From contig CM049307.1 of the NCBI GenBank assembly GCA_026874595.1, positions 53,544,370 through 53,608,369 of the forward strand: a stretch of DNA of 64,000 nucleotides. Reading direction: 5' to 3'. Under the pieces are notes generated by a model that was given only the letters and a program-made list of their open reading frames with translations, did no database searches and was not told where the DNA came from. This stretch comes from Sipunculus nudus. Lineage: Eukaryota > Annelida > Sipuncula > Golfingiida > Sipunculidae. The position numbers were made by a program, and so were the translations under genes. This document shows positions 1-54,560 of the stretch, one piece after another (within the stretch, counting starts at the first letter, position 1; the number at the start of each line of letters is the position of its first letter).

Positions 1-543
1 ATTGGGCCAAAATTGTGCATGTGTTTAGATCTCACATAGGTCTTTATCATACACAAAACTGGAGGGGTTACCTGCAAAGATTTTTGCACAGTGTTTGTCT
101 GTTTGTCTGCCATGGGCAAAAATCGCTCATATACATGTAGTGGTTTGACTTTTTTGCCTAAAATTTTGCAGGTGTATACAACTTGGACAGATTTCTGGAT
201 TTGTGGTAGGTGGCACATCCTACATACACATTAAGGCTGCAGACATCCATGCTAATATGCAACATACCTCACTCTATTTCCCCTTGCCACTCAATCCATG
301 CCTCACTATCCGATTTTGGCAGATACATGTAGTCACTTGTCGGTTACCCGTATTCTAGTTTTAAAAGTTTACACATTTTTCTCTGTTTTTGAGATATATA
401 AATACAGACTAAATCTTGGCCTGTTGGTTAATCTGTTTGATGCTTCAGTTGAATGGGTATATACTACCATTCTGGTGATAAAATTTCCTTTTGCGAATCT
501 CTTCCCAGTCAGCTGAGCGTCATGACCCATGGGTCACTTGTTT
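1..543 (+). repeat. Dispersed repeat, inverted copy at 29405-29949
   Basis: The whole stretch is nearly identical to the reverse complement of 29405-29949. Similarity stops at about 543, just after a CATGACCCATGGGTCA segment that is itself nearly palindromic, so one boundary is visible and the other is beyond the window. It is built of the same GGTGGNGCCACC-type modules seen in ABCA intron 15. The 72-codon open frame at 298-516 occurs in both copies but has no recognisable domain and is explained by the DNA identity. Confidence 0.9.
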
Positions 544-17200: not shown

Positions 17201-20200
17201 ATCTTGATGCGTAAAATTATTAAAATGTTTTTTTTAAATATTCTATGAAAATGTCGATCATCCAGAACTGATCTACAGTCTCACGTGACACATATTTCTA
17301 AATATTCCACTTCATTAAAAGGCCACCAGGTTATGACAGAGATACAAAGCCCCATACACATATTATACAACATGCCATTCATCATTCAAGTTCCATATCA
17401 ATGTCTAAGTGTGATATGGCTTATATATTTATTTTATACAGTGCTTGTATATCAGCCCGGCACTCAGTGTACTCAGTGATGCAATGCCTGAAATTAAACT
17501 GACAAGCATCAGTATTTGTGTGATGTCACCAGGTTCAGTGACTCACCGCAATGAATGAAATTGACAAGCATCATGGGGCGAGTGACATCATTTGCTTTGT
17601 GACACAACTGCCCATAAATGAAACTGACAATAAAGCTAAAAGTAGGACCCTGACTGTGTAAAAATGCCACGCACTGAAGTGTTTTGCTTGAGTACTTTGT
17701 GAAAATAGTTTGACTGTTCCTGGTTGGTCATGTTCATAACTTGCATGGCCCTTTATTAAAAAAATTATGAACCAGCTTGTTGGGTATTGCCTTTGTATTG
17801 GTTTTCAGGCCTTCGGAGACCCTCAGGTTAATACAAAGGCCAGTCAGATAATAAAAGATAAGTATCACATTTAAGTTAGGAACAATATGAATGATCAGAG
17901 ACACTCACCCTCCGTAAATTCCTGCTGACATCCAGACCAACGAGATAAGCTGCTCCTCGTGACATGGTCTCATCACCCGTCAGCATCTTGAAAGTAGTCG
18001 TCTTACCTGCACCGTTCACTCCAAGAAGCCCAAAACATTCTCCTCTTGGTATAGCGACAGTGATATGATCCACTGCAAGGAGGCTATCATAATATTTCGT
18101 CAAGCCATTTATCACAAGAGCATTGTTGCTTAGCAACTGAGGAAGTAGTGACCCTTTGACCCTTTCTCTCTCTGCCATCACATCAGAGTCTTCCTGCACC
18201 AAACTTGACGAACTTATACTCGCTGCTTGTTCGAGTGTCTCATACCTGTTTGACTTGACTGATTGTCTCCGCAATGCATACAACACTCTCCGAGGCAGAT
18301 TTGATTCCACAAGGAACACAAAGGAGAAGTACATCAGCCCTTGTGCAGCGAGGAACACCAGCATGCGACCAATTCCACGAGACTCCCAGGCCAGGTAGTT
18401 CCTCTGATAGTCAGCACAGGTGTCTCCACAATGACCTTGTTAACAGATAAGATAATTATTACATTGTTTTAATGTTATGGGAATCTGAAGGTAAAAATTC
18501 ATTTATGTAAAAGATTTGAAACTGAAACTATTCAATGAGTATCAAGAGCTGTCATAACATTTCCCTGTCTCTTCCAAAAATTCTATGTGCTCAGCTGAAT
18601 AATGCAGAAAGGCTTGCCATATTAATAACAGATAACTATCAGAGGAACATAAGTACTGTGGAACATAGGTACCAAGGTAGTGGGGAACATAGGTACTAAG
18701 GTATTGGGAAACATAGGTACTGAGGTACTGGGAAACATAGGTACCAGGGAATATAGGAACCGTAGAACATAGGTACCAAGGTACTGGGGAACAAAGGTAC
18801 AAAGGTAGTGGGGAACATAGGTACTGAGGTACTGGGAAACATAGATATAAGGTAAAATAGGTACTGGGGAACATAGGTACCAGGGAAAATAGGTACTGGG
18901 AAACATAGGTACATGGGAAAATAGGTACTTTGGAACCAAGTTATCAAGGTACTGGGGAACACTAGTACCACTGAATATAGGTACTGGAGAGCATAGGCTC
19001 CAAGGTACTGGGGAACATAAGTACTGAGGTACGCAGGAACATAAGTTCAGAGGTACAGGAGAACACAGAGGTGTTGGGAACATAGGTACGGAGGTACTTG
19101 GGAACATAGGTACGGAGGTACTTGGGAACATAGGTACCAATATACTTGGGAACATAGGTACGGAGGTACTGGAGATTATAGGTACCAATGTACTGGGGAA
19201 CATAGGTACAGAGGTACTGGAGAACATAGATACCAATGTTCTGGGGAACATAGGTATGGAGGTACTGGAGAACATAGGTACCAATGTACTGGGGAACATA
19301 GGTATGGAGGTACTGGAGAACATAGGTACCAATGTACTGGGGAACATAGGTATGGAGGTACTGGGGAACATAGGTACCAATATACTGGGGAACATAGGTA
19401 CGGAGGTACTGGAGAACATAGGTACCAATGTTCTGGGGAACATAGGTACCAAGGTACTGTAGAACATAGGTACCATGATACTAAGGAAAATAGGTACCAA
19501 GATACAAGGGAATATAGGTTCCAAGGTACTGTGGAACATAGGTACCAAAGCACTGGGGAACATAGGTATGGAGGTACTGGGGAACATAGGTACCAATATA
19601 CTGGGGAACATAGGTATGGAGGTACTGGAGAACATAGGTACCAATGTACTGGGGAACATAGGTATGGAGGTACTGGGGAACATAGGTACCAATATACTGG
19701 GGAACATAGGTACGGAGGTACTGGAGAACATAGGTACCAATGTTCTGGGGAACATAGGTACTAAGGTACTGTAGAACATAGGTACCATGATACTAAGGAA
19801 AATAGGTACCAAGATACAAGGGAATATAGGTAACAAAGTATTGGAGAACATAGGTACCATTTTACTAAGGAAAATAGGTACCAAGCTACAAGGGAATATA
19901 GGTTCCAAGGTACTGGGGAACATAGGTACCATGATACTAAGGAAAATAGGTACCAAGGTACAAGGGAATATAGGTACCAAAGTATTGGAAAACATAGGCA
20001 CCATTTTACTAAGGAAAATAGGTACCAAGCTACAAGGGAATATAGGTACTAAGGTGCTGGGGAACATAGGTACCATCATACTACGGAAAATAGGTACCAA
20101 GATTATCGGGAACATAGGTACCAAGGTCCTGGGGACCATAGGTACCGAGCTACTGGGGATATAGGTACAAAGGGTATGGGGAATATAGGTACTTTGGAAC

Positions 20201-23200
20201 ATAAGTACAAGCCAGACCTGTGTATAAGCCTGTAACAGATTTGTTTGGCCCTCAGGATCTAAGGAAGTCCAAGGTCACAGCAGCAGGGCAGATGACCTTT
20301 TGGTTTGTTGAGTTGCGTGAATTGGAAGAATGAACTATTACATAGTCTATTTTTGGAGGTAAAGAGGAGAAAAACTAAGTAATAACTAGACATTTCTAGA
20401 GTATCCCCAGACATAGTATGCCCCCCCCCCCCCCCCCCCCCTTTAAGAATTGGCCCCCATTTTAGCAGCATATACTGACACTTGGCAAGCAATTATTGTT
20501 TCTTCCATCTATCAATCCACAATCTTTTTGGAGATGTTGGTCCGGTGACCTTGACCTTTTGGCACATCACAAGGCTATCAAAGATCTTCTGTCACCTTGA
20601 TTTTGGGACCAATCCATGCAAACAATCTTGAGATATTTAAGAGTTTGTGTAATTTTCAGCAGAAATGGACCTGTTCAAAGTCAAGGTCACTCTCTTATAC
20701 CTCCTGTGACCTTGACCTTTGACCTCATGACCCCAAAATCAATCAAGTTTGAAATCCATACATCAATAAAAGCAGGAATTATCATCCAGAAACTAATTTT
20801 TGGACAGATGGCTCCTGTGACCTTCACCTTTGACCTTGTGACCTCAAAATTGATAGGGGTCTTTCACTCTTGGCAGGTGAACTATATGTGCAAGATGAAA
20901 GATCTGAGATGAATTGTTTGGCTTAAAATGCATCCACAGTATCTTTTAAGATGTGAGTCCAGTGACCTTGACCTTTGACCTCATGACCCTAGAACCTATA
21001 GGGTTCTTACTTTAGTGGTTGGCCATACATAAGTCACGTTTGAAATTCATATGGCTATCAACACTGGAGATATCATAAGAGGTGTGTGATTTTCACTAAA
21101 TTTGGACTGATTAAAGGTCAAGGCCACTGTCATGGTAAAGGTCATGACCCAAATATAAATAGACCTCATCCCATAACCCATCTCTCTACATGTGCATAAT
21201 ATGAAAGAGATCTGTCCATTAGTTTTTGACTTATAATGCTTACAGTACTGTCAAGTGGCAATTATGGGGGTATTAAAAGGCGTAAAAACAAAAAAAGGAT
21301 AATAGTTGTCACCACCAGTTTCCGGTATATTACAAGGCTATCCAAGATCTTCAGTCACCTTGATTTTTGGACCAGTCCAAGCAAGCTTACTTGAGATATT
21401 TAAGAATTTGTGTTATTTTCAGCAAAAATGGACCTATTCAAGGTCAAGGTCACTCTCCTAGCATAGGTCATGACCCCATTTTAAATAGGCTTTGTCCCCT
21501 TACCTATATCTATACAAATTTAAGGTTTGAAAAAGATCAGTGAAATATTTTTTGAGTAATCCCGCTGTCAAGGTTTTTCTGCGGAGGCGGGAACGTCGTG
21601 AAACCATAGTATCCCGACTTTGTCTGGGGATACAATAATTGTGTGTAGAGAAATCACAGGTAATTGTGTGATTTAATATGAATCAGGAATGGTCCTTAAC
21701 TTACTAATGACGTGCAACAGACAGTCGCCTTATGCGTATGCATTTTAATGTAAACTGGTATGAATGAACCAGTGTGTCACTGGAGAGAGAGTTATCAGAA
21801 ATCAGTATTATTATGCATAAGAAGATTACAAATATCTGAAATAAAAAACAAGGCCTACAGGCCCTGAGAACCTGTGCATTGGGAAATACACCAGGCATAA
21901 TGCTTCAATGCTGGACCATTACTTCTCATGTATATGAACAATGCAAGTACTAAACATTTTGAATAAGAAACAATTACACAAACATCACTGCTGAAATTCT
22001 GGCATGGGTGCATACAACACAAAAATGATTGTAGCTGGCACCAACAGTCTTGTATACAACGGAGCTATCAGAGATATATACATATGCCCAATTTCAGGCT
22101 GATATATCAAATTCCTCTGTAGAAATAAGCAGGCACATACACTGTGCAAAGTCATTGTAGGTGGCGACACCTGACTTGTGAACGAGAAAGCCTTCAAAGA
22201 CACATAGACAGGTCAAAATATCAGGCAAATACATCAAACTTACCTTGAGTCTGATGCATGGGGCTGACCAGGCTTAGGAGAGAAAGGCAGTTGCCCCGAG
22301 TGAACTGTGACAAATTTGCTAGCTGGCTCAGGCTACTGCACTAAGTGAACTCATGAACTGCACCTGGCTAGACTGAGTGAACTTTCGACCTGTACCTGGC
22401 TGCACTGAGTGAACTCTTGACCTGTTGCATAATCTGACACAGTTGGTAGTCCACATGCAGCCCTGAGGGGCATGACACCCATGAGGTGATCACATGGTGG
22501 CCATGAGGTGTTCACATGTCACCCATGAAGTGATCACATGCCTTGTGCTTGGCTACACTGACTGAACTCTTGACCTATATCTGGCTGCACTGAATGAACT
22601 CTTGATCTGTTGCCAAATCTGAAACAGTTGGTAGTTTCTCAACCTATTTAAAGATACAAACACAATCTTGGTCTGTTTGTAAATCTGTTTACACATACTG
22701 AAATACTTTGGCTAAAATGCTTTTTTTCAAGCTGACATATTCATAAACTTTTTATCAAAATATCTAAAATAATAAAAGATGCAGTTCTTTCATTGTTAAA
22801 GGTCCAATAATTCTGCCAAAAATCATTCAAGTAAACTTAAACAAAGGCCACCTTAAGAAAATTTTTTGTGCAATGTTACAGAAGTTATAATTGAAACAAT
22901 AATTTTGTAGAAGAACAGTTTTGCAGTCCTCAGTTTGAAATAGACATAATAATGGCCATAAGACCAACTTAAGCATTTCTGATATGATTGAAAGAACCAT
23001 GTCCTAGGATAATTCTTTTGAAAAATTGAATGATTCAACTTGACAGTTTCATCATAAACATTTTTAAGCTGAAAGAGGCTAAAATTATGAGGTTTTGCCC
23101 ATAAAAAACAGGTCATTGTAGGTGGCACCACAAAATCTGCAACTTCAAATATGAGTCATGTGACCAACATTTGCACAATACTTGGTAATGCTAGCTTCTG

Positions 23201-26200
23201 TCATTTCTGAGATTACTATGTCAGTATGCTTAATTGGCCAAATGACTGTTCAAATTTGTGTAACACCACTAAAATTCATCAAATGCAAACCATTTTAAAA
23301 AACTTGAGAGGGCTTGCCTCTAGGATCATTTTTGTAAAATATTGAACAATTTGGCTGGACCATTTACAAGAAGAAGACTTTTAAAGGTTTTTCAGCTTTT
23401 TCCCTATAAAATCTTAGTAAATGCAGATAGTGAAAAAATAAGCTGAATCCCAAAACATTTGATATGTGACAGATTACTGCATTAGGGATGGTAGCTCCTG
23501 CTATTCCTAAGAAATTATGGGTTAATGTACAGTTGATCAATGACCCCTGTACAAAAAAAGGTCAATGCAGGTGGCGCCACCAATACCTGAATTTCATATA
23601 TGACTCATGTGACCAACACTGGCATAAAATTTGGTGATGATAGCTCTGGCCATTTCTGAGATTGCCATTTTAGTATGCTTTTTCGGACAGTTAGCTAAGT
23701 TTAACTTCCTGTAACTCTGCCAAAATTCACCAAACTTGAACCATTCGAACAAACTTGAGAGAGATGGTATAAAAGTTTATTTCTGTGAAATATTGAACAA
23801 TTTGGCTTGACTGTTTTGGAGGAGAAGAATTTTAAAGTTTTTTTTAGCTTTTTCTCTATAAAATCTAAGAAAATGCAGAGTTTTTCAGATGGCTTATTTT
23901 TTGCATTAAATTTCATGATACTAGCAACAGTTGTTTTCAAAATAGTATGGTTATTGACGATGACAGACGATGCGAAACCATCGCATTAGCTCACAGGTTC
24001 GCTAAAAATTACTACAGATGCATATTGAATGCAAAAGTATAATACAGATACATCTCACTGAAGGCAAAATCTTGAATAAAGTTGAGTATGAATACCAATT
24101 ATTTATAATCCATGTACAGCCATCTTTATACACCCACAGAGAGCTGTATACCTGTGATTGTAAACATTGCCTGGCATGAGGAATATCTAAAATCATAAAT
24201 CTACATTTTTAAAAAGCTTTTAAAAAACATTCTTGTCAATATTAACCATAGATAACCTGAAATCTAAATGTCTAGAGGCATTATGTAACGGATGCTGATA
24301 AACTGGTGCCAGGCTAGATGTATCTGCTTCACACAGCTAACATATATGGTAAAATGACTCAATTCAATATTTATAATTCAGCCAAAATTCATTCTTTGGA
24401 ACCATAAAAGACCATTATTATAAGAATTATTCAGGGGATTATTCCTGAAAAAAATATTAAACAAATTGGCCTCAGTGGCGCCAGTCAAAAAACGTTTTGC
24501 AGGTTTATAACTCATATGGGAAAATACAGCAAAATGGCTAAGTTAAGCTTCCCATAACTCAGCCAAAATTTACTGAACCAAAACCATTTGAACAAACTTG
24601 AATTATCAACATCTAAGGATAATTTATGTGTGAGATTTAGGAATTTGGCCAAGTGTTTTTTGAGAAGAAGTTCTTTGTAGCCACTGAGCTAAAATGGGCT
24701 GTTATGGCATATGACTAAATTCAGCTTCCCATAACTCAGCCAAAAGTCACTGAACTGAGACCATTTGAACAAACTTCAGAAAGCACTACCCTAGGATCAT
24801 TTCTATGCGATATTAAACAATTTGGCCATATGGTTTTAGAGAAGAAAGTTTTTTTAGCAGTCGGTATGATACGGGCACTGATGACCCCCGTACAAAAAAG
24901 GCCGATGCAGGTGGCACCACCAATACCTCAATTTCAGATATGACTCATGTGACCAACATTGGCATAAAATTTGGTGATGATAGCTCCAGACATTTCTGAG
25001 ACATTGGACAGATGACTAGGTTCAACTTCCTGTAACTTGGCCAAAAATCACCGAACTAAAACCATTTGAACAAACTTGAGAGAGATTGTTCCAGGAATCA
25101 TTTCTGTGAAATATTGGACAATTTGGCTGAACAGTTTTGGAGAAGAAGATTTTTAAAGCTTCTTTAGCTTTTTCCCTATAAATTCTAAGACAAGGCCTAC
25201 AGGCCTAATGCGAACCTGTGCAAAGTTTGGGAGTATGAATGGAGGTTTATTTTTAAAATTTAATATTGATCCTTTTAAGTCCTGCATATCTACCTTAGTC
25301 ATTATGATTTCAGCAAAATGGACATTTCGGACCTGCAAGTTTCAGACTAGAACATTTTAAAACTAGAATATGGGTAGTCGACAAGCGACTATGTGTATCC
25401 ACAGAAATCAGAGTGGGACGGGTGAAGTGAGGCATGGATTAAGTGGCAAGGGGAATAGAGTGAGGTTTGTTGCATATTAGCATGAATGTCTGCAGCGTAA
25501 ACGTAATTGTAGGTGGTGCCACCTGTCATACAATCGAGAAAATTGGCCAGGATGTATAAACCTGCAAAATTTCAGGTGGATAAGTCAAACAACTGCTGAG
25601 ATATGAGTGATTTTATCCCAAGGCAGATGAACAGATGGAAGGTGTTCATAAGTGGTTGCAGGCAGCGCTACCAGTTTTGCTTAAGATGAAGAGCCATGCG
25701 AGATCTATACACAAGCAAAATTTTGGCCCTATTGGTCAAATGGTTCCTGAGATATGAGCTTCGATGTCTGCAGAGTAAATGTGAATGTAGGTGGCGCCAC
25801 CTGTCATAAAATCGAAAAAGCTGTCCAGGATGTATAAACCTGCAAAATTTCAGGTGGATAAGTCAAACAACTGCTGAGATATGAGCGCTTTTATCCCAAG
25901 GCAGATGAACAGATGTATGCTGTGCATAAGTGGTTACAGGTGGTGCCACCAGTTTTGCATATGATGAAGAGCTATGCAAGATCTATAAACAAGCAAAATT
26001 TTGGCCCAATCGGTCAAATGGTTCCCGAGATATGAGCTTGGATGTCTGCAGAGAAACACCTGAATGTAAGTGGCGCCACCTGTCATAAAATCGAGCAAGC
26101 TGTCCAGGATGTATAAACCTGCAAAATTTCAGCTGGATAAGTCAAACAACTGCTGAGATATGAGTCATTTTACACCAAGGCAGATGAACAGATGTATGCT

Positions 26201-29200
26201 GTGCATAAGTGGTTACAGGTGGCGCCACCAGTTTTGCATATGATGAAGAGCTATGCAAGATCTATAAACAAGCAAAATTTTGGCCCAATTGGTCAAACGG
26301 TTCCCGAGATATGAGCCTGGATGTCTGCAGAGTAAAAGTGAATGTAGGTGGCACCTGTCATAAAATCGAAAAAGCTGTCCAGGATGTATAAACCTGCAAA
26401 ATTTCAGGTGGATAAGTCAAACAACTGCTGAGATATGAGTGATTTTATCCCAAGGCAGATGAACAGATGAACGCTGTGCAAAAATGGTTGCAGATGGCGC
26501 CACCAGTTTTGCATAAAATGAAGAGCTATGCAAGATCTATAGACATGCAAAATTTTGGCCAAATCAGTCAAATGGTTCTTGAGATATAAGCTTGGATGTC
26601 TGCAGAGTAAATGTGAATGTAGGTGACGCCACCTGTCATAAAATCGAGAAAGCTGTCCAGGATGTATAAACCAGCAAAATTTCAGATGGATAAGTCAAAC
26701 CACTGCTGAGATATGAGTGATATTATCCCAAGGCAGAAGAACAGATGGACACTGTGCAAAAATGGTTGTAGGTGGCGCCACCATTTTTAGTGTATGTTAT
26801 AAAGCTATCAAAGGGCTACATTTGTGCAAAATTTTTAGCCTGATCGGTCAAATGGTTTCCGAGATATGCGAGTTTATGTGTGGAAACAAACACACAAATG
26901 GACGCTGGGCAGAGAGGAAAGGTCAGAGGTCAACCAAAAATGAGGGCGCAGCAGTTCACATGTGACCTGATGATAAACCCAATTCGCTTAAAATTTAAAC
27001 CAAGTTTTTTCAAACAGTTGAAAGATATAGTCCCAATAATCTGGGAATTCTGCATCTAAACATTGTGTTTAGATGTCTAGATGCTGTGTCTAGACGTTTA
27101 GACACACTGTTTAGACACCCCCCCCTAGAGCCAGGTCAGTTGCCATGGTAATGTCTGGAACCCACCTGTTTGTACTGAGTGACCTCTTGACTTGGCTGCT
27201 GAAACTCAGATTGTTGTCAAATCTGTTTTCAAATACAGAAAGCCTTTTTCAATGGGCTACAATGCTTTTTTAAAACTGTATTGACCCAATCTATTCTTAT
27301 AAAACTGGCAGAACCCTACCATAGAATAATTCTTGTAAAGTTTAAACCAATCAGCTTAACAGTTTCATCATAAATCCATGATTCAGCTAAAAGAGTTAAA
27401 AATTACTTTTTAGCTTGTAAAAAAACACATCAATGTAGGTGGTGCCACCAATACCTCAAAATCAGATATGACATATGTGACAAACATCGGTATAAAATTT
27501 GGTGATGATAGCTCCAGCCATTTCTGAGATTGTAATTTTAGTATGCTTTTTTGGACAGAAGACTAAGTTCAACCTCCTGTAACTCGGCCAAAAATCTCCG
27601 AACTGGAACCATTCGAACAAACTTGAGAGAGATTGTTCCAGGGATCATTTCTGTGAAATATTGGACAATTTGGCTGGAAAGTTTCACAGAAGAAGATTTT
27701 TAAAGGTTTTTCAGCTTTTTCTCTATAAAATCTAAATTAATGCAGATACCCAATAATAAGCTCCAGGGCACCAAGTTTCACATGTGACTAATTCTTACAT
27801 GCAATTTGGAGCTGCTAGCTCCGACGGTTTCTGACTTACAGCCATGGACGGTGGAAAGCCAGCCCTGGACGGCGGACGGCTGACAGCTGACAGACGATGC
27901 TGCGCCATCGCATAAGCTCACAGGTTTGCTAAAAATGCAATTAGCCAAAAAATAAGCAAAATCTGATAGAGTTTTTTAGAGGACTAATTTTTTGCATAAA
28001 ATTTCGTGATGCTAACTCTTGCCGTTTTCAAGATAGTAACAGTTAACGTACAGACGACGGACTTCGCCACACCGTCGCATAAAGCTCACAGGTTCGCCTA
28101 ATGACTAATATACCTGTAACATGTGGTGTTCCACGCTGATAACACACGACTGAATAGTTTTTCTTCTTTGTAATTTACGCCAAGTACTATGTAATGTTTT
28201 ATTGGTTAAGCACAGCTATTTACAATTAGAACCAAAACAAATTACAGTGTTTGGCTGTTCTGGGAAATTTGGCACAGCACGTGATGGGCCCTGAAACTAG
28301 GTCACTTTGTGGGTTGCAGTGAGCTGTCGATCTGAATGGCCTCTCCATGTCAAACTGTCTGGCACGTTGCCAACCACTATGCCAGAATTAGGTCAGTCAA
28401 AGAAAATCGTCAAGGACAATCAATGTATTACCATGGGTTGAAACACTGATTAAATGGGAGCTATTACCATGTTTTCCTGTATTAGCTTGCAATTTTGAAC
28501 TTTTCATTTACCTTAATCTTGTGACAAAATGATATGGCGTACAATTTCATAAGCTACAATACCAGTAATACTGACATGTAAATTTTTTTTTTTACTGTGT
28601 GAATATGTTAACAACATGTCAGTCATCTCCATGACCAGGCAGTGTGTTAGACCAGTTCATTGGCAATTACTGGCAGATCACGGAAAAATTCTTTCCTGTA
28701 TATAAGCAGGATTGGATTTTAGACCATGCTATTTGGGAACAAATTTCCCTGCTTGATTTTGAGACATTACGGTAGATACATGTACTGGTGTCTAAGGATC
28801 AGCCCCAGTATAGTTGTAAAGATACCTTAGCAGTATACAACATGTAGATAAGCCCTAAAAAATAAAAGGTATGGTTCTCAGGCACCATCCTCATCAATTT
28901 AAAACCGCGGCATCAAAATATTTCATTTCAATTTTCAAAAGAAACTTACCAAATCGGATGTTATTTCCAGAAGATGAAATAAATAATTTTGATAAAATTT
29001 CCTTTGTTTTGTAGTGTTTTACATGTTTAGCAAAAATTCTGTTATTATCATGCTTTCTCCTGATCATATGAGGTTAAGTAAACCTATTACATGTGCGTTT
29101 GTTGGTTGATGGGAGGATTTCATCCAGATCCCAGACTTTGTCCTGATCTGACTGGCTGGTACACATGTGACATCAAGGACTGAATTTTATCAACAACTCA

Positions 29201-32200
29201 GATTAAGTAATGCATGTTGTTTTTATTCTCTGCTGAAAATTTGGGACTGACAGAGGCAGAAATACTGTGCTTTTACTGAGATCTAGAATTTTTAGTCACG
29301 GGATTTCCCAGTGTGTGACGTCACTGCCGAGTTGACAGAGCTCATAAATGTGCCAATATTTTTTTAACAAATCACACAACCTCATGTTTTTAGTGGAAAA
29401 ATAGATAGAACAAGTGACCCATGGGTCATGACGCTCAGCTGACTGGGAAGAGATTCGCAAAAGGAAATTTTATCACCAGAATGGTAGTATATACCCATTC
29501 AACTGAAGCATCAAACAGATTAACCAACAGGCCAAGATTTAGTCTGTATTTATATATCTCAAAAATAGAGAAAAATGTGTAAACTTTTAAAACTAGAATA
29601 CGGGTAACCGACAAGTGACTACATGTATCTGCCAAAATCGGATAGTGAGGCATGGATTGAGTGGCAAGGGGAAATAGAGTGAGGTATGTTGCATATTAGC
29701 ATGGATGTCTGCAGCCTAAATGTGTATGTAGGTTGTGCCACCTAACACAAATCCAGAAATCTGTCCAAGTTGTATACACCTGCAAAATTTTAGGCAGAAA
29801 AGTCAAACCACTACATGTATATGAGCGAATTTTGCCCATGGCAGACAAACAGACAAACACTGTGCAAAAATCTTTGCAGGTAACCCCTCCAGTTTTGTGT
29901 ATGATAAAGACCTATGTGAGATCTAAACACATGCACAATTTTGGCCCCATCGGTCAAATGGTTCCTGAGATATGAGCTTGGATGTGTCCAGCGTTAACTA
30001 GAATGTAGGTGGCGCCACCTGTCATAAAATCAAGAAAGCTGTCCACGATGTATAAACCTGCAAAATTTTAGGCAGTTATGTCGAACCACTACAGAGAAAT
30101 GAGTAATTTTAGGCCACGGCAGACTAACAGACAGACGCTGTGCAAACATTGTTACAGGTGGCGCCACCATTTTTTGTGTATGTTACAGAGCTATCAAAGG
30201 GCTACATTTGTATAAATTTTATTTCCTGATCGGTCAAACGGTTCCCGAGATATAAGCTTGGATGTCATCAGCGTGAACGTGAACATAGGTGGCGCCACCT
30301 GTCATAAAATCAAGAAAGCTATCCTGGATGTATACACATGACGAATTTCAGGTGAATTAGCCAATTCACTGCAGAGATATGAGTGATTTTAACCCAAGGC
30401 AGATGAACAGATGGACACTGTGCAAACATGTTTACAGGTGGCGCCACCATTTTTTGTGTATGTTATAAAGCAATCCAAGGGCTACATTTGTATCAATTTT
30501 ATTTCCTGATCGGTCAAACGGTTCCCTAGATATGAGGGTTTATGAGTGGAAACAGACCCACAAATGGACACTGGATAGAGAGGAAAGGTCAGAGGTCAAT
30601 GCAAATTGGTTAGGCACCAGTTCACATGTGACCCGATAATAGGTGTAAGTTTGGGAAAAATCGGTCCATTAGTCTCCGAGGAGCTCTCTGGAAACGAACG
30701 CCGCCACGGCAGAGGAACTCGGTCAAAAACATAGTATCCGCAAAACTTCGTTTTGGCGGATACAAAAATACAGGTGGCTCCACCAGTCTGCAGAAACTAA
30801 TAAAAACACTTAATGGTCAATATCCATGCAAAAAATCATGGTGATCTCTGCATTAGTTGTTCAGATACTTCAGTTTTTGTATCAAATTGTCCATTATTCT
30901 GAGGGATACTTCGGAATCCTATAGCTTGAAGGATATGGGTAACAGAGACCTAATTTCAAGTTTCCACAGGCACCTTTCATGGGCCTCCTTGCATGACAAG
31001 AATGAAGATTCTAGGTCCAGTTGTTGCGATTTGTACCCTGTTGACAGATAACCACATCTTTAAAGGTCTCAAAAAAAAGAAAAAAATTCGTTAAAATTTG
31101 AAAAAAAAATAGAGGTGGCACATCCAGTCTGCAGAAACTGATGGAACAGCTCATGATCAATATGTATGCCGAAAATCATGACCATCAGTGTTGTGGTTAT
31201 TGAAATACTGCAGTTTTTGTATCAAATTTTCCATTATTCATGGGGGGGGGGGGGGGGGTATTTTGGACCCATACAGCTTAAAGAATATGGGTAACAGAGA
31301 CCTAATTTCAAGTTTCCATGGAGACTTTTCATGGGTCTCCCTGTGTGTCAAGAATGAAGATTCTTGGTCCAGTTTTTATGATTTTTGCCCTGTTAACAGA
31401 TGTTCATATCTTTAAAGGTCTCAAAAATACAGAAAAATTTCGTAAAAAAAAACCAACAAATACAGGTGGTGCCACCAGTCTGCAGAAACTTATGAAACAC
31501 TCCATGATCAATATCCATGCAAACAATTATGGCTATCTCTGCATTAGTTGTTCAGATACTTTAGCTTTGGTATCAAATTTTCCATTATTCTGAGCTGTAC
31601 TTTGGAGTGCCATAGCTCAAAGGATATGGGTAACAGAGACCAAATTTCAGGTTTCCATGGAGACTTATCATGGGTCTCCCTGTGTGTCAAGAATGAAGAT
31701 TCTAGGTCCAGTCGTTACGATTTGTACCCTGTTGACAGATAACTACATCCTTAAAGGTCTCAAAAATGGAGAAAACAATTCTTGAACACTGAAAATTACA
31801 GGTGGAGCCACCAGTCTGCACAAACTGATGAAACATCTCATGATCAATATGTATGTCGAAAATCATGACCATCAGTGATGTAGTTAATGAGATATTGAAG
31901 TTTTTGTATGAAATTTTTGACTATTCTGGGGGGGGTAATTTTGGGCCCCATAGCTCGAAGGATATGGGTAACAGAGACCTAATTTCTGGTTTCCATGGAG
32001 ACTTTTCATAGGTCTCTCAGTGTGTCGAAAATGAAAATTTTAGGTCCAGTCGTTACGATTTGTGCCACGCTTACAGATGACAGCATCCTCAAAGGTCTCA
32101 AAAATAGAGGAAAAAATCGTAAAAAATCAAACAGTACAGGTGGCGCCACCAGTCTGCAGGAACTGATCGAACATCTCATGATCAATATGTATGCCAAAAA

Positions 32201-35200
32201 TGAAGACCATCAGTGATGTAGTTATTGAGATATTGAAGTTTTTGTATGAAATTTTTTACTATTCTGGGGGGTACTTTGGGGCCCCATAGCTCAAAGGATA
32301 TGGGTAACAGAGACCTAATTTCTGGTTTCCAAGGAGATTTTTCATGGACCTCTCAGTGTGTCAAGAATTAAGATTCTAAGTCCAGTCTTTATGATTTGTG
32401 CCTTGTTAACAGATGTTCACATTTTTAAAGGTCTCAAAAATAGAGAAAAAAATTCGTAAAAAATCGAAAAATACAGGTGGCGCCACCAGTCTGCAGGAAG
32501 TGATGTAACATCTCATGATCAATATGTATGCCAAAAATCATGACCATCAGTCAAGTAGTTAATGAGGTATTGAAGTTTTTGTATGAAATTTTTGACTTTT
32601 CTGGGGGGTACTTTGGGGCCACATAGCTCGAAGGATATGGGTAACAGAGACCTAATTTCTGGTTTCCAAGGAGATTTTTTATGGACCTCTCAGAATCCCA
32701 AGTTACAAGGTTTTAGGTCCAGCGGTTACGATTTGTGCCTGGTTAACGGACGGACAGACGGACAGACGGACAGACAGACAGACGGACGACGGACAAAGAG
32801 TGATCGCTATAGCTCAGATGACTTTCAGTCAGCTGAGCTAAAAAATGTTTTTCCTCCATGAATTGGGCTTATTTTATGTAAAATCTATATTAATATTTTT
32901 TTCATAGGCAATTATGTTATATGATAATATAATGAGATTTGGAATACGTTTGCTTGACCTATGACATCTTTTTCTAAACATACAAAAAAAGTTATAATAA
33001 AATCCTCCCTAGCATTGATTTCTGAAAACTAGAAAGACATTCACAGAAGGAATTTTATCATCTGAATGCCAAATTTTGCAGATGGTATCCCAATTCAACT
33101 GAAGCATAGCCCAAAGGATATGGATAACTGAGGCCTAAGTTCTGGTTTCAAAGGAGATTTTACATGCACCTTCTTGGATGTCAAGTTAGTAGATTCTAGG
33201 TCCAATGGTTACGATTTGTGGCCTGTTAACAGACAATCACATCTTTGGAGGTCTCAAAAATAAAAATTTTAAGAAAATGAAAATGCGTACAAATTTGAAA
33301 ATATCCAGGTGGTGCCACAAGTCTTCAGGAACTGATGAAACACTTGATGATGAATGTGCATGCAAAGAATCATGGTAATCAATGTGTTAGTTGTTCAGAT
33401 ACTGCAGCTTTTGTATCAAATTTTTAATCATTCTGGGGGTACTTCTGAGCCATATAGCTCAGAGGATATGGGTAACAGAGACCTAATTTCAGGGTTCTAA
33501 GGAGATCTTTCATGGACCTCCCTGGATGTCAAGTTAGAAGTTTCTAGATCCTGCAGTTAGAATTTGTGCCTGGTTAACAGACAAATGGACAGACAGATGA
33601 ACGGAAAACAGACAAAGACTGATCACTATAGCTCAGATGACTTTCAGTCAGCTGAGCTAAAAAGTGTCTGAGAACCAAACCTTATTTTTATTTTGCCTAA
33701 TATATCATAATTATATGTACATACACCAACCACAATCAAGATATACTTGCATGTTTGTATGACATACCTGCACAGCACGATATATTAACCTGAGTACTGT
33801 TACATATCATCTCTACCAGAGGGTTGTCACAATATTTAAGGAACTCAGAATTCAGGTAAAAGTCCTGAAGGCCTTGACCAAGACAGAAATTAGGCAGCAC
33901 CGCCAGGAAGGCCCACTCCAAGGCTCGTCCAATATCAGCCGTCTCAAGCTGAGGAATGGCCAAGATGTTGACTGCCAGCACAGTGGCGACACCTGTCAGT
34001 GCATAAAATTATCACATTAAGCAGCAGCACAGGTGATAATTGTACAGATCCTGACAAGCTCAACATCGAATATAATCATATTATTTACTTTTCTTTATAA
34101 AAAAATTTTATTGGAATGATGTAACATGATGAACACATTTTCTGAATGCTGATACTATTCATCATTATTAATATAATATAAAGCAGAAAATTATTTAATA
34201 TTACTTTATGAAGTATGATGAAAATAACATGCTGCAACATGCGCAGTCTTGTAAGTTTTTTTTACACAAAGAGATCCCCAAAATTCGAGCCAATATTTCA
34301 TGTCAAACAGTAAATGAAGTCCTCTAAAATTGCTCCCAGCACAAGATTTGTATAATGCCTGGTGTATTTATTTAGTGTAAACAATTAGAACAAATTCTTA
34401 ACATTTTCAGCAGAGAAGAAATCTGTATGTCCAACAATTTTTTTTTTCATATATGTAATCTTCCTTGTCTTTATAGACAAACTAACTCATATACAAAATT
34501 TGATAAAAGAAATTAATATGGGACATAAGGCCTGGAGTAGTGACAGTAATGAACTTTTCTATACCTGCCAGTATGTTGAACATGGTCAGCCAGACGAGCC
34601 CGGAGGACGGCACCTTGAACATGAACGACATCAGGTACATCATGGGAAGCATTGCCCAGCCGTAGAGAGCGAACAACAGCAGCACATATCCCCAGCGACC
34701 GTCGTTAATATATGCCTCAATGTTAAAACACACAAAGGTCAAGATGAGCAACAAGCATGGAACAATATAGTTGATGAAGTTCCAGCAAAATGTTGATGAC
34801 CAGAACGTGAATGGATGAACGCCACTGACAAACTGGCTGTGCTTGGCTTTGATCGAACGCTCTTTGACCAAAAACAGCACAAAACTGCTGACCAAGAAAG
34901 ACATGCCAAACATAACATTAAATGAGACTGTAAATCCAATAAAGTCAATTGTGAGATCGTCATTGACCTTGTCCTGCACAGATCTTGGTAGTGGATGGTT
35001 CATGGTGGATATGGTGTAGTTGTCTCTTAGAACGTATCGAAGCAAAACATTATCCAAAGCACCCAAGATCATGGCTGGTGTATGGTAGGCTTGGTCATTG
35101 AACAGCCCTGTCACCTTGATTACTTGTGATGTTGTCGTGGTTTCTTGTGATGTTGTCATGGCAACTTGTGATGATGTCATATTTACTTGTGATGTTGCCA

Positions 35201-52445: not shown

Positions 52446-54560
52446 CAAGGCCTAGAGGCCAATTGAGAACCTGTGCAATGGGATATACAGCAGGTATATG
52501 TACATTATACATAATGTTTCTGTGATAACATGCTTGATCATTATTGGAAAAGTACTTGATTACTGTTACTCTTCATGTACCTGTGTGACATGTATATGAT
52601 CAATGCTAGTGCTAAATATTTCAAACCCGAGTACTAGCATCAATTACACAAATGGCACTCCTGAAATACTGGCATGGATGGACACAAAACAAAAATAACT
52701 GCAGGTGGCGTCACCATTCTTGTGTATGAGTAAGCCATCAAAGATGTATGGAGGTGCAAAATTTCAGGCAGATACTTCAAACCAGTCTTGAGCAATGTGC
52801 ACAGATGTAAAAAACCCAAAACAATTGTAGGTGGCACCACAAGTCTTGTACACAACAAAACTATTCAAGATGTTAGGACATGCACAATTTTAGGCTGACA
52901 TGTCAAATCCCACCTGAGAAACAAGCAGGGACATGTATACACTGTGCAAAAATGATTGTAGGTGGCCCCACCAGTCTTGTATTATGATGAAGCTATCGGA
53001 GATGTATAAACATGCACAATTTCAGGTCAATGTATCAAATCAATCCTGAAAAATAAGCAGGGAAATACAGTGATACACTGTGCAAACATCATTTGTGGCG
53101 ACACCAGTCTTGTGTACAAGAAAGCCATCAAAGATGCATGGACATGATATAATTTCAAGCCAATACATCAAACTTCTCTTGAGTTGGGTCCACTAAGCTG
53201 ACCAAGCTCAGCTCAGGAAGGCATTTGACCCTAAGTCTATGGTGGCTAAGTGCTAGGTGTAGCTATTGCTCAGTCTGTTTCTACAATATATCTACCAGCT
53301 TTGTTTACCACAGTATCTCAGTCCTTTCTTTGTTGAAGGTCAAATAATTCAGCAAAAAACATTTGAGTAACCTTGAACAAAGGCCACCTATTTATAATCA
53401 TTTTTGTGCAATGTTACAGAATTTGAAACAAAAACAGTTTTGCAGAAAAAGATTATTGCAGCCCTCAGTTTGATATTGTCTTACTTGGCCACTTGGCCAT
53501 GAGACTAACATCAGCTTTCTATGACTCTACCAAAAATCAATGAACTCGATCTACTCCTATACAATTAAGAGAACCCTACCCTAAGATAATTCTTGTGAAA
53601 GATTAAACCATTTGGCTAGACAGTTTCATCATAAAACATTTTTAATGTAGAAGCTGAAAGAGGCTAAAATTACAAGGTTTTTGCCCGTTAAAAACAGGCT
53701 GATGTAGGTGGCACCACAATATCAAATATGAGTCATGTGACCAACATTTGCACGAAACTTGGTGAAGGTAGCTCCTGTCGTTTCTGAGATTGTTATCTCA
53801 GTATACTTACTTGGCCATATTACTAAGTTTAAATTCCTATAAAACTGGCCAAAATCCATCAAACCAAAATCATTGAAACAAACTTGAATCTCATCTCTGG
53901 GCTCATTTCTATGAACTATTGAACAATCTTGCTAAATTATTTCTATAAAATATTTCTATATTTTTACATAAAATTTGGAGATACTAGCTGCTGTTGTTAC
54001 TGAAAAATTATGGGTTAATGTACTGATGACCCCCATACAAAAAAGGTTGATACGGGTAGTGCCACCAACATCATAATGTCAAATATGATTCATGTGACAA
54101 ACATTTGTATAAAATTTGGCGATGATAGCTCCAGCTTTTCTGACTGAGACTGTAAATTTAGTATGTTTTTTTGACTAAATGACTATGTTCAGCTTCCTGT
54201 AACTCTGTCATGAGTCAGAGACCAATTCAGGGATTATTTCTGTGAAATATTTTACAATTGGGCTGGACAGTTTCAAAGAAAAAGATTTTAAAGGTTTTTT
54301 TCTTTTTCCCTATAAAATCTAATTCAATTCAAATAGCAAAAAAAATAAGCTCGATACAAGAAAGTTTGACATGTGAAGGAACAAAGTTGTAGGAGATCTT
54401 AGGGACACCTAACTAAGCCAAATTTCAGATTGTAGGGTCAATGGTGTCAAAATGTGCCAGATGAACAGACACACAGACATATGAACAGACAAACGGCTGG
54501 ACACATTTGACAGATGACAGACACTGATGGATCACTATATAGCTCAGTTGACTTAAATGT
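52446..54560 (+). repeat. Composite element E4, abutting E3
   Basis: Begins AAGGCCTAGAGGCC and GAGAACCTGTG immediately after E3. It contains several GGTGGCNNCACC-type joints (about 52706, 52831, 52962, 53707) and ends in an ACAGACAAACGG tract and TATAGCTCAG without a full hairpin. Confidence 0.65.

What the first reader, a model, noticed from the sequence alone, without database searches (positions are those of the whole stretch)
25509..30763. Two arrays alternating 149- and 131-bp units, each joined by the palindrome GGTGGCGCCACC
Joints recur at 25790, 25939, 26069, 26218, 26347, 26493, 26622, 26771 and at 29731, 29879, 30008, 30157, 30288, 30437. Intervals alternate strictly (about 149, about 130). 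Flanking units are two different, diverged sequences, yet the 12-bp palindrome stays perfect at seven of the fourteen joints. Retention of a short palindrome in decayed arrays suggests it is a functional joint, for example a protein-binding or recombination site, rather than a passive remnant.
Basis: partly seen in the sequence, partly recalled or inferred. Interest (0 to 1): 0.75.

Follow-up and report, generated by a model that had tools for sequence, protein, structure and literature searches.

The report
Palindrome-headed repeats inside Helentron-type jumping DNA
The two arrays are the internal tandem repeats of short, non-coding, Helentron-type jumping elements that are very common in this animal genome, and the shared 12-letter palindrome is an old, well-kept part of those repeats that appears to decay like the rest once a copy has landed.

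Summary
The arrays alternate 149- and about 130-bp monomers that are diverged copies of one ancestor, each headed by GGTGGCGCCACC. It occurs 111,757 times exactly in the 1.43-Gb genome; its reversed control occurs 14 times.

The arrays are central repeats of a non-autonomous Helentron (HINE). The window holds a compound copy (about 29,409-32,845): subterminal inverted repeats, adjacent inverted repeat, microsatellite, 337-bp array, 280-bp array, terminal palindrome. Two genomic copies are 96-97% identical.

About ten repeat types share the palindrome, usually preceded by YA. In the six best-sampled types, AAATTT-like (+44-51) and GAGAT (+75-79) blocks follow: one ancient module.

Among close copies of the main unit the palindrome diverges about as fast as the unit; it is conserved only between older lineages, and not at the joint into one unit type. 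So constraint seems to act on source elements. Where visible, array borders lie about 20-40 bp from a palindrome position.

My reading is a double-stranded, probably protein-bound cis-site of the element; CTCF is a weakly supported candidate. In passing, element orientation is uniform over a megabase of one chromosome.

The parts
29409..32845 (-). Compound HINE (non-autonomous Helentron). In its own orientation it reads on the - strand: T run, 5' subTIR, inverted repeat, GTCC/GTCT microsatellite, 337-bp array, spacer hairpin, 280-bp array, 3' subTIR, terminal palindrome. Ends are exact to a few bases only (A/T runs).
   Evidence: 97% identical to L012 over 3.5 kb and 96% to L010 over 2.7 kb; ends read
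32811..32845 (-). HINE 5' end: subTIR AGCTCAGCTGACTG (window CAGTCAGCTGAG at 32826) and next to it an inverted repeat (GTCATCTGAGCT, 11 of 12, gap 5)
32746..32795 (-). microsatellite of the HINE left flank (GACGGACA on +)
29409..29445 (-). HINE 3' end: subTIR (29434) and perfect terminal palindrome TGACCCATGGGTCA (29415-29428), about 5 bases from the element end; the next host base is T
29693..30533 (+). second 280-bp (149+131) array; joints 29731, 29879, 30008, 30157, 30288, 30437
30764..32747 (+). 337-bp array whose units are also headed by the palindrome, exact or decayed (30773 to 32476)
25474..26868 (+). first 280-bp array; joints 25512 to 26771. It belongs to another, diverged element of this type (25355-26315 aligns with 29585-30536 and 26030-26975 with 29693-30641)
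33105..33663 (-). remnant of another HINE with one 337-type unit (palindrome at 33308, 2 mismatches) and the same end AGTCAGCTGAGCTAAAAA
1..542 (+). end of a HINE of the same subfamily in the opposite orientation, 98.7% identical to 29409-29950, cut by the window edge
23540..25196 (+). stretch with D-type repeats, palindromes at 23570 (exact) and 24910 (1 mismatch)
52704..53136 (+). F-type (about 132 bp) array with decayed palindromes; roughly 58-67% identical to the 280-bp arrays in long alignments

Best explanation
The arrays are the central satellite-like repeats of HINEs, which move by rolling-circle transposition with a Helentron transposase made elsewhere. The monomers descend from one old module of about 95 bp: YA-GGTGGCGCCACC, then an AAATTT-like block near +45 and GAGAT near +77. 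The palindrome is kept in the lineages that go on making copies, because it is a cis-element of the source copy; most likely it is a double-stranded dyad bound by a protein, host or transposase. After insertion it decays like its surroundings. Shown: HINE anatomy, shared module, and (for the main joint types) conservation between lineages without visible protection among close copies. Inferred: the movement mechanism, that the site is protein-bound, and that it aids amplification.
For: HINE anatomy at both ends in the 4 copies read (W, L010, L012, L020), with single-base differences in L010 and L020; inverted repeat 11 of 12 in W. PF14214 Rep domain: 143 matches in this genome, 150 of 195 candidates scored. 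Module: GAGAT in 31 of 60 non-A/B palindromes at +61..95, against 2 at +1..35 and 0 at +99..133. Between 11 representatives, identity is 0.59 at +25..28, 0.61-0.62 at +43..46 and 0.59-0.69 at +70..79 against control 0.477, sd 0.016 (representatives were picked by exact palindrome, so the palindrome itself is not tested there). Units found by body alone: palindrome exact in 12 of 34 C337, 14 of 20 D and 6 of 9 E units. Between lineages: A units at body 0.222 have joint 0.111; B2 at body 0.375 have joint 0.093. YA precedes 157 of 162 typed palindromes with up to 1 mismatch.
Against: At A-to-B1 joints the palindrome is not conserved (15 of 51 exact after dropping 4 joints with over 6 mismatches; divergence 0.23 at body 0.17). 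One subfamily spread with altered palindromes at its first joints (GGTTGTGCCACC, GGTAACCCCTCC in W, L010, L012), so not every palindrome is needed. Among the closest B2 pairs the joint differs more than the body (0.101 v 0.028). Pairs of units are not independent. Other blocks are as conserved: the best body 12-mers are perfect in 0.71-0.82 of units, the palindrome in 0.50-0.58 at A joints; some of those blocks were enriched by the anchor used to choose loci. YA is less strict in units found by body alone (27 of 34, 18 of 20, 7 of 9). F, I and J units lack an exact GAGAT near +77 (9 units). No autonomous partner was found: the one Helentron-like locus read over 20 kb shows no subTIR or palindrome within 2 mismatches.
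Confidence: 0.6

Rival explanations
1. Passive remnant: the palindrome is simply part of a repeat of common origin, with no function. Its apparent conservation reflects few source elements plus subfamily differences that by chance lie in the bodies.
For: Neutral-like divergence among close A copies and at A-to-B1 joints; other body blocks are as conserved.
Against: The palindrome recurs in about ten types whose bodies are otherwise hard to align, and stays similar between lineages where bodies differ by 0.2-0.375.
Confidence: 0.22
2. Recombination or replication joint: arrays expand or swap bodies at the palindrome during rolling-circle synthesis.
For: Different bodies begin right after the same palindrome. 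Published precedents in PMC5139131 (passages, section 12): a conserved palindrome near the repeat junction in DTC84 of Donax, and breakpoints in palindromes of phBglII400. The 337-bp array begins 9 bp before its first palindrome.
Against: Of about 19 of the 280-bp arrays listed, 7 show a left border fragment, starting at B position 80, and 15 a right one, stopping at B 84-98; none of these is at the palindrome (the other borders were not resolved). 1 of 25 double-mismatch joints is complementary; 7 of 25 are at symmetric positions, but 5 of the 25 are copies of one variant, GGTTGCGCTACC. The bodies are homologous rather than swapped.
Confidence: 0.12
3. The site is a host CTCF site: YAGGTGGCGCC fits the animal CTCF core YAGRKGGCRSY (recalled), and the palindrome offers the core on both strands.
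For: YA precedes 157 of 162 typed palindromes.
Against: The recalled upstream CCA half of the CTCF site is absent. The right arm is as conserved as the left where it lacks the YA context (A-to-B2 joints 0.97-1.0 at positions 10-12), which a one-strand core does not predict. The central CpG decays mainly to TG/CA, so it is not clearly protected.
Confidence: 0.1

Closest known systems
Cg_HINE elements of Crassostrea gigas (PMC7492417; passages and section 6 seen)
   Same: subTIR, adjacent inverted repeat, GTCC-type microsatellite in the left flank, satellite-like central repeats, subTIR plus palindrome in the right flank; exceptionally two arrays in a row
   Different: Here about ten repeat types share one palindrome-headed module. 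The parts seen report conserved segments shared between some clusters, not this palindrome.
DTC84 element of Donax trunculus and the pearl family (PMC5139131, passages; the original paper was not seen)
   Same: a conserved palindrome near the repeat junction of the central repeats
   Different: The DTC84 sequence could not be compared, so homology is unknown.
BIV160/Cg170 satellite family (PMC5139131, passages)
   Same: old monomer family with short conserved motifs in diverged bodies, partly carried by Helitron-type elements
   Different: two conserved motifs are described there; whether either matches the blocks here was not tested, as no sequences were compared
DINE-1 and mite HINE (PMC4067079, passages)
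   Same: subTIRs of 12-15 bp, inverted repeat near the 5' subTIR (DINE-1), 3' stem-loop, TT or T-rich target, optional central repeats
   Different: autonomous partners are described there; none found here

Membership tests
Helentron non-autonomous element (HINE) | subterminal inverted repeats at both ends | tested here: met
   CTCAGCTGACTG, 12 of 12 inverted between the ends of the window copy
Helentron non-autonomous element (HINE) | inverted repeat next to the 5' subTIR | tested here: met
   11 of 12, gap 5; an earlier scan with too narrow ranges returned nothing
Helentron non-autonomous element (HINE) | palindrome or stem-loop near the 3' end | tested here: met
   TGACCCATGGGTCA at window 29415, about 5 bases from the element end; one mismatch each in L010 and L020
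Helentron non-autonomous element (HINE) | microsatellite and central tandem repeats | tested here: met
Helentron non-autonomous element (HINE) | insertion at TT without target duplication | tested here: inconclusive
   T follows the 3' end and a T run lies at the 5' end in 4 of 4 copies read, no duplication seen by eye; no empty site was examined
Helentron non-autonomous element (HINE) | autonomous Helentron with the same ends | tested here: inconclusive
   143 PF14214 matches; 4 short loci (L022-L025) and 1 locus of 20 kb scanned, no subTIR match; whether these code for Helentron rather than Helitron proteins was not tested
canonical Helitron | 5' TC, 3' hairpin then CTRR, insertion between A and T | tested here: not met
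   By reading the ends of 4 copies: T run plus subTIR at one end, CACTTGT then T at the other
CTCF binding site | bound by CTCF | not testable with these tools
   orthologue present; no binding data

The most novel reading that the evidence does not exclude
Helentron-type elements have spread over 100,000 palindromic binding sites for a host chromatin factor (CTCF or a like dyad-binding protein) as regularly spaced arrays. Because the elements lie in one orientation relative to genes or replication, they lay down oriented tracks of such sites over megabase stretches.
Probability: 0.06. Interest if true: 0.85.

Novelty: new member of a known kind. Interest (0 to 1): 0.4.

Why it matters
Satellite-like arrays carried by Helentrons are reported from molluscs and insects, and the role of their conserved motifs is open as far as the papers seen here tell. 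Here one motif is present in over 100,000 copies and in many lineages, so constraint on source copies can be separated from decay after insertion. That turns the question of whether the motif is functional into a rate test and a binding test. If the motif is a protein site, the elements may have rewired much of the genome; if not, it warns against reading function from motifs that persist in decayed arrays.

Tried and rejected
Rfam on the window: 0 matches at gathering thresholds. The exact 12-mer in papers: 1 paper, on an endochitinase, seen in the listing. Papers for CTCF with Helitron: 23 hold all four terms, 12 listed, none opened. Papers for AGGTGGCGC with CTCF: 3 listed, none opened, so the CTCF consensus used here is recalled. 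Papers for Helitron orientation: 1 listed, passages seen; 25 found, 10 listed, none opened apart from none of those. A look-up of the DTC84 paper by a DOI recalled from memory found nothing held; one search found only two papers that mention DTC84 and palindromes.

Hairpin: the consensus fold gives only the palindrome itself, 4 pairs, covariation term 0. All 15 rows carry an exact palindrome, so this says nothing about covariation inside it.

CpG protection: joint CpG kept/(kept+deaminated) 0.59-0.88, body CpGs 0.35-0.85. Only modestly higher and partly confounded by subfamilies, so not used.

Orientation test around exons: 18 ion-channel loci held no HINE match, so it could not decide.

Species: the animal was not identified. 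A COX1-type frame on C123 (L002) reads as bacterial to me.

Bias in sampling: loci L003-L014 and L046-L063 were chosen by a body anchor and L026-L045 by exact palindromes, all on C1. Seven random 10-kb loci (L015-L021) hold 2 exact palindromes in 70 kb, below the genome mean. Place lists are capped at 100.

Rows dropped: units with more than 12% gaps. Left joints with more than 6 mismatches (1 of 139 A, 4 of 55 B1, 0 of 59 B2) or more than 5. In one search only palindromes with up to 1 mismatch that fitted a listed type were counted. Offsets of up to 2 bases were allowed for joints, which slightly favours the palindrome. B2 joints were read one or two bases off and are not used.
Full report
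What is there. The window lies on contig C2 of a genome of 1.4265 Gb in 153 contigs, in and around an ABCA-type transporter gene on the minus strand (Pfam ABC2_membrane_3, ABC_tran and R1_ABCA1). The array at 25.5 kb begins two joints earlier than stated (25512, 25661). The unit types, here A (149 bp) and B (129-131 bp), are 73% identical over 125 aligned bases of their consensus, so they form a higher-order dimer of one ancestral monomer.

Abundance. GGTGGCGCCACC occurs 111,757 times exactly, against 14 for its reversed form, and 218,229 times with up to one mismatch, against 575. A body anchor independent of the palindrome occurs 21,548 + 22,113 times.

What carries it. The stretch from about 29,409 to 32,845 matches L012 at 97% over 3.5 kb and L010 at 96% over 2.7 kb, with sharp ends and unrelated flanks. 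Read on the minus strand it has a T run, the subTIR AGCTCAGCTGACTG, an inverted repeat (11 of 12), a GTCC/GTCT microsatellite, the 337-bp array, a GTATCCGC...GCGGATAC spacer hairpin, the 280-bp array, the inverted subTIR, and the perfect palindrome TGACCCATGGGTCA about 5 bases from the end, followed by T. L010 and L020 show the same ends with single-base differences. These are the features listed for HINEs in the parts seen of PMC7492417 and PMC4067079. An end pattern of the element occurs 11,813 + 11,495 times. Helitron-type Rep domains are present (143 matches; 150 of 195 candidates scored). The one locus read over 20 kb has no subTIR or palindrome within 2 mismatches; it has one 2-mismatch match to a 13-base piece of the element end. 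The autonomous partner is therefore unknown.

One module, many repeat types. Palindromes with up to one mismatch in the fetched loci fall into eleven types by the sequence that follows (A, B1, B2, C337 and D to J; H, I and J were seen once or twice). The two bases before are CA or TA in 157 of 162. In A, B1, B2, C337, D and E an AAATTT-like block is common at +44 to +51 and GAGAT at +75 to +79; F, I and J lack an exact GAGAT there. A gap-poor alignment of 15 representatives shows the same blocks. For 11 representatives, cross-type identity exceeds a random-offset control (0.477, sd 0.016): 0.59 at +25 to +28, 0.61-0.62 at +43 to +46, 0.59-0.69 at +70 to +79. Because representatives were picked by exact palindrome, its own conservation is not tested there. 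When units are found by the body alone, the palindrome is exact in 12 of 34 C337, 14 of 20 D and 6 of 9 E units, and YA precedes it in 27, 18 and 7.

Is the palindrome protected? In A, B1 and B2 units found by body models (153, 57 and 60 units kept; 138, 51 and 59 with a usable left joint), I compared pairs. For A units, at body divergence 0.031, 0.079, 0.124, 0.177, 0.222 and 0.263 the left joint diverges by 0.022, 0.074, 0.095, 0.107, 0.111 and 0.142. So it nearly keeps pace early and then levels off. For B2 units it stays at 0.05-0.10 over the whole range; among the closest pairs (body 0.028) it is higher than the body (0.101). For B1 units it exceeds the body in every bin (0.232 at body 0.171; 0.406 at 0.265); without the central CpG it is about equal up to body 0.13 and higher beyond. 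Exact joints: 80 of 138 B-to-A, 36 of 59 A-to-B2, 15 of 51 A-to-B1. Constraint between lineages at two of three joint types, with none clearly visible among close copies, is what one expects of a site that matters for source copies. Against this, some body blocks are equally well kept, and a subfamily spread with altered palindromes at its first joints.

What it might do. As a single strand the palindrome could form only a 4-bp stem. One of 25 double mutants is complementary; 7 of 25 lie at symmetric positions, but 5 of the 25 are one variant. A recombination joint is not favoured: of about 19 of the 280-bp arrays listed, 7 show a left border fragment, starting at B position 80, and 15 a right one, stopping at B 84-98, which is 19-38 bp before a real or expected palindrome. 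The other borders were not resolved, and the 337-bp array does begin 9 bp before its first palindrome. A double-stranded protein site is what I find most likely. YAGGTGGCGCC fits the recalled CTCF core, and a CTCF orthologue with very similar fingers 3-5 is present. But the recalled upstream CTCF half is missing, and both arms are equally kept. I therefore rate CTCF at about 0.1 and a dyad-binding protein of unknown identity higher.

Known or new. A conserved palindrome near the repeat junction (DTC84) and satellite breakpoints in palindromes (phBglII400: 13 of 16 in a 12-bp one) are reported in PMC5139131 (passages and section 12). Double arrays in HINEs are reported in PMC7492417 (passages). 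I found no paper with this 12-mer in repeats (one unrelated paper) and none on the function of such motifs (one paper listed, not opened). This is a new member of a known kind, with an unusually clear shared module.

Side finding. On C1 the HINE end pattern lies on + at 56 of 56 listed places from 96 kb to 1.147 Mb, then on - at 11 of 11 from 1.237 to 1.469 Mb, then + at 3 and - at 1 up to 1.592 Mb. The A/B anchor agrees: 77 + and 0 - before 1.077 Mb, then 24 - and 0 + from 1.103 to 1.472 Mb. Thinned to 30 arrays at least 20 kb apart or of changed strand, 25 of 29 neighbours agree, permutation mean 16.4, p = 0.00015. That the minus lists are complete there is inferred from how the tool seems to fill its list. 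All 20 palindrome-picked loci of that stretch are +. Against generality, over 17.4 Mb the exact end pattern thinned to 74 places shows 41 of 73 like neighbours, permutation mean 36.6, p = 0.18. Where I could see a gene, HINE arrays nearby lie opposite to it in palindrome orientation, that is, HINE 5'-to-3' along gene sense: ABCA in the window, B-RAF in the + stretch, a WD40-like exon in the - stretch (weak), and a coiled-coil frame in L021 (no Pfam match over cut-off). That is 4 of 4, too few to decide. The opposite-oriented element end at window 1-542 lies outside the exons seen, and HINE-bearing L018-L020 showed no gene that I could recognise.

Noticed in passing
G000 C1:96,426-1,592,080 (genome, outside the window): HINE orientation is uniform over long stretches (56 + and 0 - over 1.05 Mb, then 11 - and 0 +), though not detectably so over 17.4 Mb; it may follow gene sense, replication direction or a piRNA-type locus.
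   Followed up: partly
window 18653-20192: Tandem array of about 64 copies of a 24-bp unit (GTACTGGGGAACATAGGTACCAAG), inside a 550-codon open frame on the minus strand, next to a transporter exon.
   Followed up: no
L066-L084 (19 loci around CTCF and ion-channel exons, about 70 kb): No HINE match and no palindrome with up to 1 mismatch in these loci, against HINE hits in 4 of 7 random 10-kb loci: elements may be depleted close to exons.
   Followed up: no
G000 contigs C60, C61, C62, C66, C72, C74, C75, C89, C123: Nine near-equal COX1-family matches on eight contigs plus one on C123 in long open frames suggest bacterial contigs (symbiont or contaminant) in the assembly; only C123 was translated.
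   Followed up: partly
L015-L021: CpG observed/expected varies from 0.22 to 0.86 between random 10-kb loci, as in mosaic-methylated invertebrate genomes (recalled).
   Followed up: no
window 20865-21636; L027, L029, L034, L036, L045: E-type element, 84-96% identical to L034, with TGACCTTGACCTTTGACC blocks that resemble nuclear-receptor half-sites (recalled).
   Followed up: no
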